Positions 4,112 through 57,934 of a stretch of 64,000 bases of DNA are shown here, piece by piece. Source of the DNA: Effrenium voratum (lineage: Eukaryota > Sar > Dinophyceae > Suessiales > Symbiodiniaceae); contig CAUJNA010002890.1 of the NCBI GenBank assembly GCA_963377175.1, positions 426,510 through 490,509 on the forward strand, given 5' to 3'. The translations under genes and the position numbers were made by a program. Below the pieces are notes generated by a model, which was given only the letters and a program-made list of their open reading frames with translations, was not told the DNA's origin and did not search any database. Position 1 is the stretch's first letter, and every line of letters begins with the position of its first letter.

Positions 4112-4290
4112 CCCCCCAAAGCCCCCCCCCACCCCCCGGCCCAGGATGGAATCGGGGGAGGAGGCAGGTGGCCCGTTGGGATTTCCTTGGTGGGGGGGAG
4201 GGGGTGACCTTTCCTTGAAAGGGCGGGGGGGGGTGGGGAGGGGGTGACCCAAGGAAGTTCCGGGGGGGGAGGGGGAGGGGTGACCCCTGG
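4112..4290. repeat. C-rich then G-rich tract
   Basis: Runs of up to nine G, with a repeated TTTCCTTG ... GGGGGTGACC unit (three imperfect copies); potential quadruplex just after an exon. Confidence 0.8.
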
Positions 4291-6111
4291 AATTTCCTTG
4301 GGCGTGTCTTTTTGAGGTAACCTGTTTGTTTGCGCTTTCAAAATGAAACCCAAAAGGAAAAACACAATTCTGGGGCGCGCCAAAAGATATCCCACCAATG
4401 TTTGCTTCCATTTTCTCTAAGGCTAGACAAATGGCACTAGGGGACCCCGACCGCCTCCCCATGGGAGCTAGGGGATGTTCTGAAGGACGGTCGCCGAAAA
4501 CCCCCCCAAGTACCTGATCTTTGCATCGGCTCACTCCATCCGTTTCAGGAAGACCACTATCAGCCAAGCTAAAGTATACTACTTGGATGTAATGTTGAAC
4601 CCATATTAGTCAACCCCTGGTTGCCAATAGGAAGTTGTCCCTCAGTCTAGTGGGGATTCATCACTTTCGGAGCACCCCCACACTATTAAACTGGGGTTGA
4701 TTAATATGGGCTCGACATTACCACCAAGTAGGTGGTCAGCCACCTGGGATATAACCGTTTCCCCTTAGAGATATCACCCTTCCCAAAGCACAAGATGGTT
4801 CCGACGCTTTTCTACCATTCGGGTTTGCGTTTGCAACTGGCCTAGATCTCCCAAAACTCAAGCCCTTCTCAACCAATCGAAATCTGAGAGTTGCAGTCTC
4901 CATCAGTCCTTTCCGAGCGGGACAAAAACGCCACCTATTCAGATGGACTCGTGACCGTGTGATTTTTTGTTTGTGTCCGCATTTCCACCGATTCAAGAAG
5001 AGTCCACTCTTGGATGTCCGGCCAAGTTAGTAAGTTGTTGGTAAGCTAGGTTATAACCCGGTCACACGCCCCCCTTGGAGTTGACCTTGTTGTTTGTGCC
5101 TGGCCAATCACTCAGGAAGTGAGTTGGTTGTTATTTTGTCGTTGTGGGTATCCGCGAGGGGATCAGTCTCGCTAGGTCCCAGACCTCCGAATGTGGCGCA
5201 AGGAAGGCTTTGAGGCATCTGAGGGTTGGGGAAGAAGCTGGGGGGGTGGGGGGCCTTGCTGGGATATTCAACCAACGTCAGGTAAGCAGATTAGAACTGT
5301 GCTATAATTAGATTAACTGGGGTTGGTCCCCTTAGAACCTGACGATCACCACTTACTTGGCCGCACACGCAAGTAGTTGCCAGGGGACGCCATGACCCTA
5401 GGGTTCAACCCCATTCAAAGAATGGCCTTGAGTAGGTAAACAACGGTGGTTTTTGTTAAACCCCCATTGTGTGAATGGTGGTTGGAATCCCAGAGATGAT
5501 GCAAGACCTCGAGGGGAAAAAAACACGGCAATTGGAGCACACAAGCATGGCGAAGTACGTCAAATTAGAGAGCTTCCTGGATCCTTACGAATATACAATA
5601 TTTCGGGCATCCTCCGTTCCCGGAGAGATTGGAGATGTATTGTGATGTTGAGCTATGAGCAAATATGATGTACAACGGGGCGGGGTATGCTGAACACGTG
5701 GATACAAATTGCTCGACCTGGAGTCCACATGACCCTTGAAACATGGTATGACCATCTACCCCATTGGGTCTCGGTGAGGCCAGGTGCCTTCTTTAGGGCA
5801 ACGCGGTGCTACAAAGGAGTCTATGGCACAGGAAGAAAGTTACTCCTACAGCCACGATGTTCACAGATTCACAGGTACAGTGATGTGTGGCGTTGTCGCG
5901 GGGGCAATCTGGTTGCTAGGTTGGTCAATCAGCGGCATCCTCCTCCCAAACTACCTAGTCCATCTTCCATAGTTGTAGCTGACAGAGAAACCAACTATTG
6001 ATTGCCCTTGCAATAGCTCACTTGATGTGTACAGTCTCTAACACGCCTTCACCCTTCTGCTCCGGCCGATACTCGTTGGCAGCAACATCACGGTCGGAAC
6101 ATTCAAAAGCA

Positions 6112-50053: not shown

Positions 50054-50470
50054 GTATGTATGCATGCATGTACATAAGTATGTATGCATGCATGTATGTA
50101 TGTACGTATGTATGTATGTATGTATGTATGTATGTATGTACGTACGTAATGTATGTATGTATGTATGTATGTATGTATGTATGTATGTATGTATGTATGT
50201 ATGTATGAATGAATGTGAATGTATGTGAATGTATGAATGAATGTATGTATGTGAATGAATGAATGAATGAATGTGAATGTGAATGTATGTAATGTATGTA
50301 TGTATGTATGTATGTATGTATGTATGTATGTATGTATGTATGTATGTATGTATGTATGTATGTATGTATGTATGTATGTATGTATGTATGTATGTATGTA
50401 TGTATGTATGTATGTATGTATGTATGTATGTATGTATGTATGTATGTATGTATGTATGTATGTATGTATG

Positions 50471-50501
<31 letters not shown>

Positions 50502-50784
50502 TGTATGTATGTATGTATGTAATGTATGTATGTATGTATGTATGTATGTATGTATGTATGTATGTATGTATGTATGTATGTATGTATGTATGTATGTATG
50601 TATGTATGTATGTATGTATGTATGTATGTATGTATGTATGTATGTATGTATGTATGTATGTATGTATGTATGTATGTATGTATGTATGTATGTATGTATG
50701 TATGTATGTATGTATGTATGTATGTATGTATGTATGTATGTATGTATGTATGTATGTATGTATGTATGTATGTATGTATGTATG

Positions 50785-50815
<31 letters not shown>

Positions 50816-51016
50816 TGTATGTATGTAATGTAATGTATGTATGTAATGTATGTATGTATGTATGTATGTATGTATGTATGTATGTATGTATGTATGTATG
50901 TATGTATGTATGTATGTATGTATGTATGTATGTATGTATGTATGTATGTATGTATGTATGTATGTATGTATGTATGTATGTATGTATGTATGTATGTATG
51001 TATGTATGTATGTATG

Positions 51017-51047
<31 letters not shown>

Positions 51048-51137
51048 TGTATGTATGTATGTATGTATGTATGTATGTATGTATGTATGTATGTATGTAT
51101 GTATGTATGTATGTATGTATGTATGTATGTATGTATG

Positions 51138-51168
<31 letters not shown>

Positions 51169-51588
51169 TGTATGTATGTATGTATGTATGTATGTATGTA
51201 TGTATGTATGTATGTATGTATGTATGTATGTATGTATGTATGTATGTATGTATGTATGTATGTATGTATGTATGTATGTATGTATGTATGTATGTATGTA
51301 TGTATGTATGTATGTATGTATGTATGTATGTATGTATGTATGTATGTATGTATGTATGTATGTATGTATGTATGTATGTATGTATGTATGTATGTATGTA
51401 TGTATGTATGTATGTATGTATGTATGTATGTATGTATGTATGTATGTATGTATGTATGTATGTATGTATGTATGTATGTATGTATGTATGTATGTATGTA
51501 TGTATGTATGTATGTATGTATGTATGTATGTATGTATGTATGTATGTATGTGTATGTATGTATGTATGTATGTATGTATGTATGTATG

Positions 51589-51619
<31 letters not shown>

Positions 51620-51909
51620 TGTATGTATGTATGTATGTATGTATGTATGTATGTATGTATGTATGTATGTATGTATGTATGTATGTATGTATGTATGTAT
51701 GTATGTATGTATGTATGTATGTATGTATGTATGTATGTATGTATGTATGTATGTATGTATGTATGTATGTATGTATGTATGTATGTATGTATGTATGTAT
51801 GTATGTATGTATGTATGTATGTATGTATGTATGTATGTATGTATGTATGTATGTATGTATGTATGTATGTATGTATGTATGTATGTATGTATGTATGTAT
51901 GTATGTATG

Positions 51910-51940
<31 letters not shown>

Positions 51941-52375
51941 TGTATGTATGTAATGTATGTATGTATGTATGTATGTATGTATGTATGTATGTATGTATGT
52001 ATGTATGTATGTATGTATGTATGTCATGTATGTGTATGTATGTATGTATGTATGTATGTATGTATGTATGTATGTATGTATGTATGTATGTATGTATGTA
52101 TGTATGTATGTATGTATGTATGTATGTATGTATGTATGTATGTATGTATGTATGTATGTATGTATGTATGTATGTATGTATGTATGTATGTATGTATGTA
52201 TGTATGTATGTATGTATGTATGTATGTATGTATGTATGTATGTATGTATGTATGTATGTATGTATGTATGTATGTATGTATGTATGTATGTTTGTATGTA
52301 ATGTATGTTTGTATGTATGTATGTATGTATGTATGTATGTATGTATGTATGTATGTTGCATGTATGTATGCTATG
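50054..52375. repeat. ATGT tetranucleotide array, 2.3 kb
   Basis: Nearly pure TGTA units, with about a dozen single-base insertions (TGTAATGTA) that shift phase. Frames of up to 856 codons in it are artefacts. Confidence 0.95.
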
Positions 52376-54241: not shown

Positions 54242-54315
54242 GTTTTGAGGGCAGGATTAATATTTTGTTCAAAACATGAACCATGTTTATTAGTTATTTT
54301 TTTAAACATAGAATA

Positions 54316-55296
54316 TTATTGATTAGTTGGTTTAATACGTTTTAGTTTTAAAGTATAATCATCAATTCTTGTTTTATAATAGGTTATTAATTTATATTGA
54401 ACTTGTACTAGATCTTCTTCATTACCACATGTTTTTATTGTATCCGATATGGTAGGATGACAACATAATTGTCTTAGTTGTATTCGTGTTGCTGTTCGTA
54501 AATTCATATCATATATATGTTTTGCAACATCAGTTAATTCAATCCACATAACATTAGTTTCGATTTCAGGAATGTCTATTTATTTTTCAACATCTTCTGT
54601 TTTATGTCTAATACACACATTATTTAATATATTGTTTGTAATTATTTCATTATTTTTAATATAGTCATAACTAATATTATTATTAGAATCTTGATTATAA
54701 CTAATTATTACATTATTATCATATATATTTTTTTGTATTAATAAAATATAAAGAAAAATCAACATCAATATCTAATTCAAATGGTGTTCCTGATACATAC
54801 CATTTATTTGCAGCTGAAATATCAGTAATCCATGAATCAAGACTTTTAAAAGCGGGATTTGTAAATAATTCATGTGCTTCATCATATAAAAATCTATGAA
54901 AATGAACAAAATAAAATACTGGATTAATTCTTTGTTAAACATAGTGTTTGTTGTTTTAATATAATGTAATGATAAATACAAATTATAATTAGATACAAAA
55001 TTAAAACTTGTAATAGTAATATCCGCATTACTAATATCATTACTCGTAATTTTATTATACTCAGTTTTAGTATTAATCATTATAATATTAAAGTTCCTAT
55101 AACATCTTAATAATTCATGTTTCCATTGTTTTGTAATATGTGAAGGACATACAAATGATGTTGCTATTGAATTTAATTTATAGATATTATTATTTAAACA
55201 AACTTTAAATTCAGACATTTCTGTTAATTGATTAGCATAAATTAAACTCGAACAAGTAATTGTCTTACTTTGTAATGATTTAATACTTTCAATCAT
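54316..55296 (-). pseudogene. SNF2-family helicase/ATPase relic, NCLDV-like, frameshifted
   Basis: Read on the minus strand, three frames hold successive parts of one SNF2 ATPase. The upstream part (55296 downwards) has the P-S-H-x-x-x-Q-W-x-x-E motif that follows the Walker box. A shifted frame has the DEAH box (54872-54883) and, about 30 residues on, S-G-T-P (54782-54793). A third (54549-54316) has LRQLCCHP, typical of RAD5/HLTF-type SNF2 proteins. At least two frame breaks and stops make it non-functional. More worn coding DNA may extend to about 55640; a Walker A motif was not found. Codons are extremely A/T-rich. SNF2 helicases with this composition are common in nucleocytoplasmic large DNA viruses; a eukaryotic or bacterial source is not excluded. 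Confidence 0.6.
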
Positions 55297-55774
55297 TGAT
55301 ACATTTAAATAATTATCAGATAAATAATTATTATATAAACAATGTGTTAATGCTATTGATATATTTTTACATTCATTAATTTATAAATGGTTAAAACAGT
55401 ACTATATAATATGGTATATTTATTATTATATTTAATATTATATGTTATGTCCCATAATTTAGAGTTGTTTAAGTTGTCATGAAACATAAGATTTATATTG
55501 TTATTATTATTTGAATAATATGTGTTTCATCATTTATAGTATTATATCTTAAAATAAAATTGTCATTATTACTTCCAGCTAATGTAATACTATTGACTTG
55601 ATTACAAGTATTACACAAATAGTTGTTATTATATTTAGTTATATTCTATTACAATATAGTAATATATGGTTAATTTAAAGTAAATATTTCAATTTCCTAA
55701 AACATATTAAATAAACAAATGAATTAAACAAATAATTATATACTATATACGTATTTCAATGGAATAGACTTATT

Positions 55775-55792
55775 ACCGTAGCCATTTTGGCT
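55775..55792 (+). other. Relict dinoflagellate spliced leader
   Basis: Eighteen bases, ACCGTAGCCATTTTGGCT, match the start of the 22-nt DinoSL added to dinoflagellate nuclear mRNAs by trans-splicing. The last four bases (CAAG) are replaced by TCTG. It lies 31 nt before the ATG of the RBR-like gene, where the leader would be in a mature mRNA. A chance 18-base match in 64 kb is very unlikely (about 2 in a million). Confidence 0.85.
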
Positions 55793-55823
55793 TCTGCGTG
55801 GAGAAAGTCCGTACAGTGCAGAG

Positions 55824-57566
55824 ATGGAGATGGAGGTGGGGAGAGATGCGCCCTCTGAGATGGTCGTGGGAGACGATCAGACAGTTTTGGATCTGACCGC
55901 GCATATGGACAAGGTGCGCTCGCTTGTCGCTCATCTGTATTCGCAACTGCCCGTTGCGTCTCACGAAGCACAACCTCAGCGTACGAAGGACAAGAACGAG
56001 TGGCATCACCTGTATCTATTGAAGTACGCTGTCATTGAGCCAATTGACGAGATCAGGCAAGTTGCCGGAAGTCTACGCACAAAGGATTGCAATCCTTTGA
56101 CAACCACTCAACTGGACTCATTTCTAGCATTGTGCTCATCCGATTGGGTTATCGGCCCGTCGTCCTCTGATAAGACAAAGGCGGAGTGGCAAACTTTGCT
56201 GAACGGGTTGAACCAGAATTTGTTGAATGCCACAAAGTTGAGGAGGTATGATTTTCTCGACGAGGACAAGATCAACTTGTGGTGTGTGCAGTTGCCTATG
56301 TTTCCAAAGGCGCGACAGCAAAAGGTTTACACCATGAAGATCACCATCCCGGACATGAGGAGAAGGGGTAAGAAGGTGACATTTTCGGTTACCAGCAAGT
56401 CCTTCAACTTGTTGGCAAACTTTGGCGTAGATCCACTGGGTGGTTCAAACGATGTTGACGATCCAACTCTTGTCGGATTCTATTCGTCGTTGTACTATAA
56501 GCACAATGGCTATCTCGATATGCTGAAGGAAAGCGATGGGTTCTTATGCAGAACACTTGTCGACAAGTGCTCGAAGGAACTGTTTGTTCTGCAGCGAACA
56601 ACTAACACGAAGTTCGCAATTGCGAAGGACTATGACACCGCTTTGGCACTTTTTACTTCCATGATTTCAGTCGAGTCCAGACTGATGGATTTTGATGCAG
56701 TTCATAAGACCAATGGCAAAATCATCGAACTTGGTATTGTTGGAAATAACAAGACATGTGTTTTGTGTGACAGACGTTCTAAGACCGAGTATTCGATGCG
56801 ATGCAGACGCAGGTTGATACCATGCCCATGTACACACTATGGGGGAAGCAACTACTTCTATGATTTTGGTTTGCGTCAGACCAAGAACACTTTTGTGAAG
56901 TACATCAAGGAAGTTGCAAATCCCCGAATGTCACCAGCCAAGTACTACAAATTAGTTGACATGTTGGAAGCATTGATCAACTTGTGTGTGACGGAAAGTT
57001 TCAAGGAGAGGAGAACGCACCCCAAGTGCCACAAATGTGGTAACGTTGATACGAACGATGAAGCGATACGAAGTGAAAGCTTTGTATTGGCTTACTATCG
57101 TCATCCAACCGACATGACATGCACGGCATGCAATCATCGTTGCTGCACCGATTGTGGCGAGTCGCATTTTGACGAGGGGTTCTGCAGAGGGCGTCCTGCG
57201 AAGGAGTACGAAGAGATCTTGGAGAACTTTCCAAATGCAAGAGACTGCCCATGGTGTGGCGAAATTCCATCAAAGGATGACATGTGCCACTTTGTAACTT
57301 GTGGATCGTGCAAGTGGCATTGGTGCTATAACTGCCGTGTTCCATTGAGAAACCATGACCAGTACTCAAAGAATCACAACTGCTGTGTGAATCCAAGAAA
57401 TTTGGCATACAAGGCAGTCCATGTCTTCAATGGATTAGGCGAACAAGTTCCGATCGAAATGCTTCCTCTGGCCATCGAAGGACCGTCGGAGTTCAGCGCC
57501 ACCCAAGAGGCAAATATGAGAAGACGGCGACAGCTACCAGCGAACTTTGTCGTCCAGCGCCAGTGA
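55824..57566 (+). CDS. RBR-like (IBR/RING2) E3 ubiquitin ligase, intronless
   Basis: 580 codons, intact, ATG 31 nt after the relict spliced leader. The C-terminal part is cysteine-rich. A BRcat/IBR-like module has C402, C405, C433, C436, C441, C444, H448 and C454. A RING2/Rcat-like module has C475, C478, C493, C496, C501, C504 with H511, H518 and C520 after it; C488 occupies the position of the catalytic cysteine that receives ubiquitin in RBR ligases. The RING1 equivalent (C312, C315, C327, C334, C336, H338) is degenerate. Residues 1-310 resemble nothing I recognise. Codon third positions are near 50-60% G/C, lower than host exons and far higher than the AT-rich flanks. No intron is visible, while the host gene nearby has dozens of kilobases of them. 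It could be a retroposed host mRNA, a virus-captured host gene, or a viral gene. Confidence 0.72.
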   Translation: MEMEVGRDAPSEMVVGDDQTVLDLTAHMDKVRSLVAHLYSQLPVASHEAQPQRTKDKNEWHHLYLLKYAVIEPIDEIRQVAGSLRTKDCNPLTTTQLDSFLALCSSDWVIGPSSSDKTKAEWQTLLNGLNQNLLNATKLRRYDFLDEDKINLWCVQLPMFPKARQQKVYTMKITIPDMRRRGKKVTFSVTSKSFNLLANFGVDPLGGSNDVDDPTLVGFYSSLYYKHNGYLDMLKESDGFLCRTLVDKCSKELFVLQRTTNTKFAIAKDYDTALALFTSMISVESRLMDFDAVHKTNGKIIELGIVGNNKTCVLCDRRSKTEYSMRCRRRLIPCPCTHYGGSNYFYDFGLRQTKNTFVKYIKEVANPRMSPAKYYKLVDMLEALINLCVTESFKERRTHPKCHKCGNVDTNDEAIRSESFVLAYYRHPTDMTCTACNHRCCTDCGESHFDEGFCRGRPAKEYEEILENFPNARDCPWCGEIPSKDDMCHFVTCGSCKWHWCYNCRVPLRNHDQYSKNHNCCVNPRNLAYKAVHVFNGLGEQVPIEMLPLAIEGPSEFSATQEANMRRRRQLPANFVVQRQ

Positions 57567-57668
57567 AGCATTTTGCCGACGAGAATTTGCACATGATTGT
57601 ATAGATTATATTGTGTGCGAAATTTGAACTGTTGTTAGATTGACTTGTACAGTTATGAATATGGTTTA

Positions 57669-57693
57669 TTTTCCTTGATATTTATCAAGAAAA
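57669..57693 (+). terminator. 3' hairpin after the RBR-like gene
   Basis: TTTTCCTTGATA, a 2-nt loop, then TATCAAGAAAA: a 7-bp perfect stem extended by four A-T pairs past one bulged C, 102 nt after the stop codon. Hairpins of this kind mark transcript 3' ends in several giant viruses. In AT-rich DNA such stems also arise by chance. Confidence 0.4.
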
Positions 57694-57934
57694 GTACATT
57701 GACATATTATAATCTACAATACTTATATTAATGTTTAATAGTATAAACAGTATAGTTGCATTAAGAGAACTTAAGCAAACAGTAAGACATCTGTTAATAT
57801 CCCAAATCTTGAATAAATTTCGTTAATCCCGATTATTCGTACGCTCCCGATTGCTTCAAACGGCCAGGTTTCGAGACCCCAAAACCACTCCGGGTGTCCA
57901 ATGGAGGGTCTGGGGCTTCCATTGGAAGCCCCAG

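What the first reader, a model, noticed from the sequence alone, without database searches (positions are those of the whole stretch)
55775..57566. RBR-like gene carries a relict spliced leader: captured or retroposed mRNA
Eighteen bases of the DinoSL sit exactly where the leader would be in the mRNA, and the gene has no introns. This implies it passed through a trans-spliced mRNA. Because AT-rich DNA lies on both sides, either a host mRNA was copied into a viral genome that later integrated, or a cDNA landed in an already integrated viral fragment, or a viral transcript itself was trans-spliced. Each would be notable.
Basis: partly seen in the sequence, partly recalled or inferred. Interest (0 to 1): 0.86.

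Follow-up and report, generated by a model that had tools for sequence, protein, structure and literature searches.

The report
Virus gene wearing host's spliced leader
A gene left by an AT-rich, virus-like stretch of DNA in a dinoflagellate genome starts with a copy of the tag that its host normally splices onto its own messages, and other such genes do the same just behind a shared promoter-like signal, so the virus probably wrote the host's tag into its own DNA.

Summary
Confirmed: 55775-55792 is DinoSL bases 1-18, 31 bp before an intact 580-aa, weakly IBR-like ORF in a 3.6-kb AT-rich island beside a broken SNF2-like helicase. It is not an isolated relict. The same genome has 32 sites TTACCGTAGCCATTTTGG; 18 of 30 examined follow DNA of at most 27% GC, and many head GC-rich, apparently intronless ORFs of several families. 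Many upstreams share a two-box element (AA[AT]TGA near -46; T[TC]CATTA at exactly -20) with the leader at +1; 8 of 13 tested gene ends carry a hairpin. A giant-virus-like metagenome contig (L001) has the same layout; it and the window score in the top 0.035% and 0.16% of AT-rich background with a matrix that excluded them, though 8 other sites do not score well. Twenty control SL sites show none of this. A protein search found the leader in 7 of 7 places of one family (21-22/22; one place new), with proteins down to 39% identical. Best reading: a DNA-virus transcription unit with the host spliced leader encoded at its start, now endogenous and decaying. Start site and function are inferred; no RNA was seen. 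A one-off retroposed mRNA is disfavoured; ancestral cDNA capture remains possible.

The parts
54256..57827 (.). AT-rich virus-derived island holding the SL-headed gene
   Evidence: Fitted composition change points 54255 and 57827; GC 0.22-0.25 just inside against 0.48-0.49 outside.
54316..55380 (-). Broken SNF2-like helicase; pieces 54316-54579, 54719-54934, 54772-55380, the middle one in another frame
   Evidence: Pfam SNF2-rel_dom E 0.00038 (54772-55380) and 0.0023 (54719-54934), both below the curated cut-off; the third piece has no such match. PDB matches weak.
55725..55774 (+). Diverged promoter-like element in register with the other SL-headed genes
   Evidence: Score in the top 0.16% of 17,286 overlapping AT-rich 60-mers for a matrix built without it. 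Neither box is present in exact form at the usual place.
55775..55792 (+). DinoSL bases 1-18 (the tail CAAG reads TCTG), at the inferred transcription start
   Evidence: composition change point at this base.
55793..55823 (+). 5' untranslated stretch
   Evidence: Between leader and ATG.
55824..57566 (+). 580-aa ORF with an IBR/RBR-like Cys/His region, GC3 0.563
   Evidence: One 98% identical protein on a 588,707-base contig. Partial sister copy in another AT-rich island, L052 4526-5294.
57585..57622 (+). Hairpin at the GC to AT boundary, candidate transcript end
   Evidence: Folding of 57574-57643: z=-2.31, 5 of 300 shuffles as good; 3' change point 57583, interval 57570-57605.

Best explanation
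The RBR-like gene is a former viral transcription unit. Viruses with very AT-rich DNA, giant-virus-like, that infect dinoflagellates carry a class of intronless, host-like GC-rich genes. In these the host's 22-base spliced leader is written in the DNA at the transcription start, behind a two-box viral promoter, and the unit often ends at a hairpin. Their messages would start with the leader without trans-splicing and so pass as host messages for translation or stability. The window holds one such unit, endogenised with viral DNA and now decaying. Shown: the island, the leader's position, the shared upstream element, the leader's presence in all places of one family found by protein, hairpins at many 3' ends, and the same layout in an independent viral contig. 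Inferred: that transcription starts at the leader, that the leader acts in translation or stability, and which virus family it was.
For: 32 TTACCGTAGCCATTTTGG sites, 0 for the reversed pattern; 26 of the 30 cut out have the full leader and 18 of 30 have at most 27% GC in the 200 bases upstream. Composition change point exactly at the leader in 15 of 22 loci tested, weakly so in 3 of them. Box2 T[TC]CATTA at -20 in 13 of 26 upstreams (background 0.8%), box1 AA[AT]TGA at -50..-36 in 12 of 26 (background 3.4%) (boxes were read off largely the same upstreams). Scores of upstreams not used to build the matrix: window top 0.16%, L052 0.035%, viral contig L001 0.035%; two island leaders that the site pattern missed (L102 3430 and 7080, tandem copies) score 22.1 and 21.3, above the background maximum of 9.8. 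Family B by protein: leader at 7 of 7 places, 6 exact, 1 with one change; for L095 and L099 promoter 0.82, gene 0.56, leader 21/22. Hairpins z<=-2 at 8 of 13 gene ends against 11 of 120 random pieces. GC3 0.34-0.70 in 12 SL-headed ORFs, 0.03-0.11 in 8 ORFs of one island. 20 of 20 control SL sites: 33-67% GC upstream, scores -22.1 to -70.6.
Against: No RNA data. The site search demanded most of the leader, so leader identity in that set is partly by selection; of the 7 family B places only 1 was not already in that set. 8 held-out sites score poorly or middling (L001a, L070, L072, L073, L076, L085, L089, L093), several with host or repeat DNA upstream; left out in turn, training loci C2 and F fall to 5.8% and 11.7% of background. 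6 of 30 sites have 42% GC or more upstream. The window's own boxes are not intact, its leader lacks the tail, and it has an AG at -9. 5 of 13 gene ends show no hairpin. No capsid gene was tested: the PF04451 searches did not complete. Host-like GC is also what captured host cDNA would show.
Confidence: 0.7

Rival explanations
1. Serial capture: each SL-headed gene is a host mRNA copied to cDNA and inserted into the viral genome next to a viral promoter; the leader is a passive relict.
For: Host-like GC3, no introns seen, complete leaders at the 5' end of the GC-rich unit in L001 and in the islands. Poxviruses are reported to capture host genes through LINE-1 retrotransposition (PMC9578705 and PMC9578709, titles and abstract starts in the listing).
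Against: Leader at 21-22 of 22 in family B while its proteins fall to 39% identity; box2 at exactly -20 in genes of different families; no host parent for RBR or family B in this genome.
Confidence: 0.2
2. Ordinary dinoflagellate retrogene that landed in an already integrated viral fragment.
For: Retrogenes with DinoSL relicts are common in dinoflagellates (PMC6050394, part 1 of 3 of the text read); 203 further SL sites exist in this genome, arrays included.
Against: The same layout recurs at other islands and in a viral contig; 20 of 20 control SL sites lack it.
Confidence: 0.04
3. The upstream element is not a promoter but a preferred insertion site, next to which an integrating element places SL-tagged cDNAs.
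For: Fixed spacing between the boxes and the leader.
Against: Upstream element, leader and 5' UTR resemble each other within families as if inherited together; 3' ends often coincide with hairpins.
Confidence: 0.05

Closest known systems
dinoRNAV, +ssRNA virus of Symbiodiniaceae with a 5' dinoSL (Levin 2017 as described in PMC10235124; passages read)
   Same: A dinoflagellate virus carrying the host leader at its 5' end; mimicry is speculated there.
   Different: RNA virus with the leader at the 5' end of its assembled genome. Here DNA-virus-like islands carry separate genes, each with its own DNA-encoded leader behind a shared upstream element.
DinoSL retrogenes of dinoflagellates (Song 2018, PMC6050394; part 1 of 3 read)
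   Same: Leader in genomic DNA before a gene.
   Different: Control SL sites of this genome lie in DNA of host-like GC without the upstream element; here the leader sits at a fixed place behind it.
Mimivirus-type transcription units (PMC4402537; abstract and passages read)
   Same: Early motif AAAATTGA and hairpin-forming transcript ends.
   Different: No spliced leader and no box at -20 in the passages I saw.
Polinton-like viral elements of dinoflagellates (PMC12721341, PMC10120064; passages read)
   Same: Low-GC viral islands in dinoflagellate genomes.
   Different: 'Spliced leader' has 0 occurrences in the main text of either.
Poxvirus gene capture through LINE-1 (PMC9578709, PMC9578705; titles and abstract starts)
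   Same: Host genes entering a large DNA virus through an RNA step.
   Different: As far as I saw, capture only; no fixed leader at a start site.

Membership tests
DinoSL retrogene | Leader or relict upstream of the ORF | tested here: met
DinoSL retrogene | Parental copy in the genome (paired for only 6.4% and 9.8% of retrogenes in two species, PMC6050394) | tested here: not met
   Protein search of the own genome: only the window and the C161/C1535 copies. Weak as a test, since most retrogenes are orphans.
DinoSL retrogene | Ordinary host DNA flanks, no shared upstream element | tested here: not met
   controls.
Endogenous giant-virus-like element | AT-rich island with viral replication or transcription genes | tested here: inconclusive
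   SNF2-like pieces below cut-off in the window; piece in L052 whose best PDB match is NTPase-I 6rfl_Y, E=0.012; UvrD_C 9.8e-6 and CoiA_nuc 6.1e-6 in L101.
Endogenous giant-virus-like element | NCLDV major capsid protein in or near the islands | not tested
   PF04451 searches of the own genome did not complete.
Mimivirus-type transcription unit | AAAATTGA-type early box upstream | tested here: inconclusive
   AA[AT]TGA at -50..-36 in 12 of 26 leaders; in the window the motif is at -58 only.
Mimivirus-type transcription unit | Hairpin at the transcript end | tested here: inconclusive
   8 of 13 ends z<=-2, window z=-2.31; the transcript ends themselves are unknown.
Viral spliced-leader mimicry (dinoRNAV-like) | Transcript carries the leader at its 5' end | not testable with these tools
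   No RNA data.
RBR E3 ligase | RING1-IBR-RING2 with catalytic Cys | tested here: inconclusive
   IBR below the Pfam cut-off; no PDB match; AlphaFold model unusable, mean pLDDT 29.4. Cys spacing resembles RING2 by recall.

The most novel reading that the evidence does not exclude
A lineage of dinoflagellate DNA viruses runs two gene classes: AT-rich genes without leaders and host-like, GC-rich genes whose DNA encodes the complete host spliced leader at the transcription start, so that their mRNAs look trans-spliced. The shared leader could also serve as a homology pad through which SL-bearing host cDNAs recombine into viral promoters, giving the virus a standing route for gene capture.
Probability: 0.55. 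Interest if true: 0.93.

Novelty: new variant of a known kind. Interest (0 to 1): 0.88.

Why it matters
Dinoflagellates tag their nuclear mRNAs by trans-splicing; how a DNA virus that transcribes its own genes gets its messages accepted there is open. A template-encoded leader would be a direct answer and can be tested by 5' end mapping. It also gives a sequence handle for finding dinoflagellate viruses, and it warns that genomic DinoSL sites, used to recognise retrogenes, may include viral start sites.

Tried and rejected
Isolated retrogene: disfavoured, because the layout recurs. Chance match: rejected. Viral-contig hits of leader patterns (6 stretches; 3; 41, overlapping sets): apart from L001 (and L009, the same contig) each lacks the CAAG tail or the AT-rich context, and I take them for chance. 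Leader 21-mer in prokaryote genomes: 2 contigs, both in Dehalococcoidia MAGs; L046 reads as eukaryotic rDNA and L045 carries the leader at a contig end, which I take for misbinned or chimeric DNA. Relatives in viral contigs of the window gene, a window SNF2 piece and an L102 ORF: none confirmed; of L001's glycosyltransferase only itself. Relatives of L001's SL-headed protein: only itself. A hairpin at 57645-57700 noticed by eye was not supported (z=-0.64). L001's 3' hairpin is strong in a 46-nt fold (z=-4.33) but not in a 70-nt fold (z=-1.03). Structure prediction of the ORF failed. The DNA of the island's helicase part has no second copy in the genome; the 7 other matches are 72-77% identical stretches of about 100-130 bases.

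Counting notes. One search found 32 sites and 30 were cut out; one search reduced them to 22 non-redundant upstreams; one search tested a hand-picked 22 of the 30 for the 5' change (3 of the 15 hits at the leader, L068, L082 and L087, have log-likelihood gains of only 3.5-4.3) and 14 for the 3' change, of which 13 went on to folding (L072 was dropped because its composition rises there). Some of the 13 are relatives (L069/L093, L084/L090). The matrix used 10 loci; held-out L072, L090 and L093 are relatives of training loci; the backgrounds are overlapping windows. The boxes were read off largely the same upstreams, some of them related, so those rates are descriptive. Control sites: 20 of 203, the first single sites listed, arrays at C558 and C722 skipped; they were defined by a non-T at -1, which leans against AT-rich DNA. 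Sites with other bases before the leader were not examined. L102 2755 and 6404 are loci already in the set (L091, L092). Families were grouped by eye from 5' sequence and translations, except B (protein search).

Not in print, as far as these searches show: I found no report of a DNA virus encoding DinoSL. I saw listings, and passages of PMC10235124, PMC8045281, PMC12721341, PMC10120064, PMC4402537, PMC11788076, PMC3388326 and PMC9270025 (there the term stands in the reference list only). Subscription papers are mostly not held, and Levin 2017 was not held under the DOI I tried.

Full report
What is there. The 18 bases at 55775-55792 match DinoSL exactly; of the last four leader bases three are changed. 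They begin exactly where composition jumps: the best change point falls after 55775, with 19% GC before and 49% after. The 580-codon ORF starts 31 bases after the 18-mer. The island is about 54256-57827. Its left part is a helicase broken into frames, two of whose pieces have SNF2-related matches below the Pfam cut-off. The ORF has a weak IBR match and GC3 0.563, against 0.187 in the helicase piece.

A second copy. In the same genome (G000, 1.156 Gb) the only other matches to the protein are a partial, broken copy at C161 and its repeat at C1535; the two 9-kb stretches are 99.94% identical. That copy lies in another island with AT-rich DNA. It begins with the leader (bases 1-17, then AGAAG), has a different 5' part, and joins the RBR sequence at codon about 358; the shared stretch is 93% identical over 770 bp. 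Downstream of it are a helicase piece whose best PDB match is a viral NTPase-I (6rfl_Y, E=0.012) and a weak T5orf172 match (E=0.028). Its 5' composition change is less sharp (interval 4201-4333, leader at 4209). Between window and L052, 7 synonymous and 33 non-synonymous differences give pN/pS 1.17 (220 of 223 codons), as expected of decaying endogenous copies.

Not one gene but a class. TTACCGTAGCCATTTTGG occurs 32 times in the genome; the reversed control pattern occurs 0 times. Of 30 loci cut out, 26 have the complete 22-base leader; the exceptions are the window, the two L052-type loci, and one with a single change. The 200 bases upstream have at most 27% GC in 18 of 30, 34-36% in 6 and 42% or more in 6. 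In 15 of 22 loci tested the composition change is exactly at the leader, weakly in 3 of these; in 7 it is elsewhere. The genes fall, by eye, into several families: A (L064, L065, L074, L086, L087), B (L069, L072, L073, L078, L081, L093, L099), C (L068, L079, L082, L091, L092), D (L070, L077, L080), L071 alone, a RING-like one (L083, with L089), and L084/L090. L076, L085, L089 and L090 show no long ORF starting near the leader. In 12 loci measured, the first long ORF has GC3 0.34-0.70 and a 5' UTR of 33-227 bases, while 8 AT-rich ORFs of one island have GC3 0.03-0.11.

One island in detail. C3534:1478500-1498499 is 7-29% GC over its first 14 kb apart from the SL-headed genes. It holds ORFs with matches to UvrD_C (9.8e-6, at the cut-off), CoiA_nuc (6.1e-6, above it) and an integrase SAM-like domain (2.9e-4, just below), and five leaders, four exact and one with a single change. 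Two of the four lie in a tandem repeat of the other two, about 3.65 kb apart.

Shared upstream element. Upstream sequences line up without gaps into AA[AT]TGA near -46 and T[TC]CATTA at -20, then the leader at +1. Box2 sits at exactly -20 in 13 of 26 upstreams (0.8% of background), box1 at -50..-36 in 12 of 26 (3.4%); these boxes were read off largely the same sequences. The better test is a matrix from 10 loci, with the two T's imposed by the search left out. It puts upstreams not used to build it in the top 0.16% (window), 0.035% (L052), 0.035% (L001b) and 0.046% (L090, a relative of a training locus) of 17,286 AT-rich 60-mers. L093 and L072 reach 0.8% and 1.9%, and L001a, L070, L073, L076, L085 and L089 do not score. 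Two island leaders that the site pattern missed score 22.1 and 21.3, above the background maximum of 9.8. Twenty control SL sites have 33-67% GC upstream and scores from -22.1 to -70.6. AAAATTGA is the early promoter motif of mimiviruses and is reported in other large DNA viruses (passages in PMC4402537 and PMC11788076).

An independent virus. L001 (IMGVR_UViG_3300045993_001077, 7,157 bases, GC 22%) carries two complete leaders. One starts a 0.98-kb unit of 49% GC at the exact composition change, with box1 (AAAATTGA) at -46 as in islands L064, L069 and L099. Its neighbour, a 975-aa glycosyltransferase of 21% GC, has 119 other matches at E<=1e-10, most of them 54-70% identical, on contigs up to 719,641 bases, one labelled 'viral metagenome'. 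So the layout is not confined to endogenous copies in one genome.

Is the leader kept by selection? The site search selects for it, so I searched family B by protein (query taken from an SL-headed locus). It gave 7 places, near-identical copies included, 1 of them not in the earlier site list; all 7 have the leader in position, 6 exact and 1 with one change. Between L095 and L099 the leader matches at 21 of 22, the 60 bases before at 0.82, the 60 after at 0.67 and the next 300 at 0.56. If the leader drifted at the rate of the 60 bases after it, 21 or more of 22 would have probability 0.002; at the promoter's rate 0.07. So in this pair the leader is kept at least as well as the promoter; one pair does not prove selection. 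In other pairs the flanks are too alike to tell, or one upstream is host DNA.

3' ends. At 13 GC to AT boundaries, 8 fold with z<=-2, against 11 of 120 random AT-rich pieces; the window boundary has z=-2.31. Mimiviridae polyadenylate transcripts at such hairpins (PMC4402537).

Interpretation. The simplest account is a viral transcription unit from promoter to hairpin in which the leader is template-encoded at the start site. No AG, as a trans-splice acceptor would need, lies within 27 bases before the leader in the 7 island loci checked; in the window the nearest is at -9. Whether these units began as host mRNAs is a separate question. Their GC and lack of introns suggest it; the absence of a host parent for RBR and family B in this genome and the divergence within family B argue against recent, one-by-one capture. 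That a dinoflagellate virus gains from bearing the leader has been speculated for an RNA virus (PMC10235124, passages).

Limits. No RNA data, no capsid search answered, no named host or virus, a partly selected site set, and weak identity of the RBR domain.

Noticed in passing
window 50228-52360: About 2 kb of TGTATG-type simple repeat that gives long spurious ORFs.
   Followed up: no
L001 2890-2960: A second full leader 147 bases upstream of the first, without a GC-rich gene behind it, next to a GC-rich inverted repeat; nearby bases look, by eye, like an interrupted further leader.
   Followed up: partly
L001 1936-1780: The SL-headed ORF ends in TAG, but by eye the same frame stays open for about 50 more codons up to the AT boundary.
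   Followed up: no
L052 4209-5294: Chimeric SL-headed gene: a different 5' part joined, out of frame, to the RBR 3' part, as if SL-headed genes recombine.
   Followed up: partly
L102 2755-3430 and 6404-7080: Tandem repeat of about 3.65 kb with two SL-headed genes per unit.
   Followed up: partly
G000 C722:109177-122979: Array of CACCGTAGCC leaders, many about 136 bases apart, probably SL RNA genes.
   Followed up: no
L045, L046: Leader-bearing contigs in two Dehalococcoidia MAGs; L046 reads as eukaryotic rDNA, so the bin looks contaminated.
   Followed up: partly
P0001: 98% identical protein on a 588,707-base contig; 11 residues differ and it starts 4 residues later.
   Followed up: no
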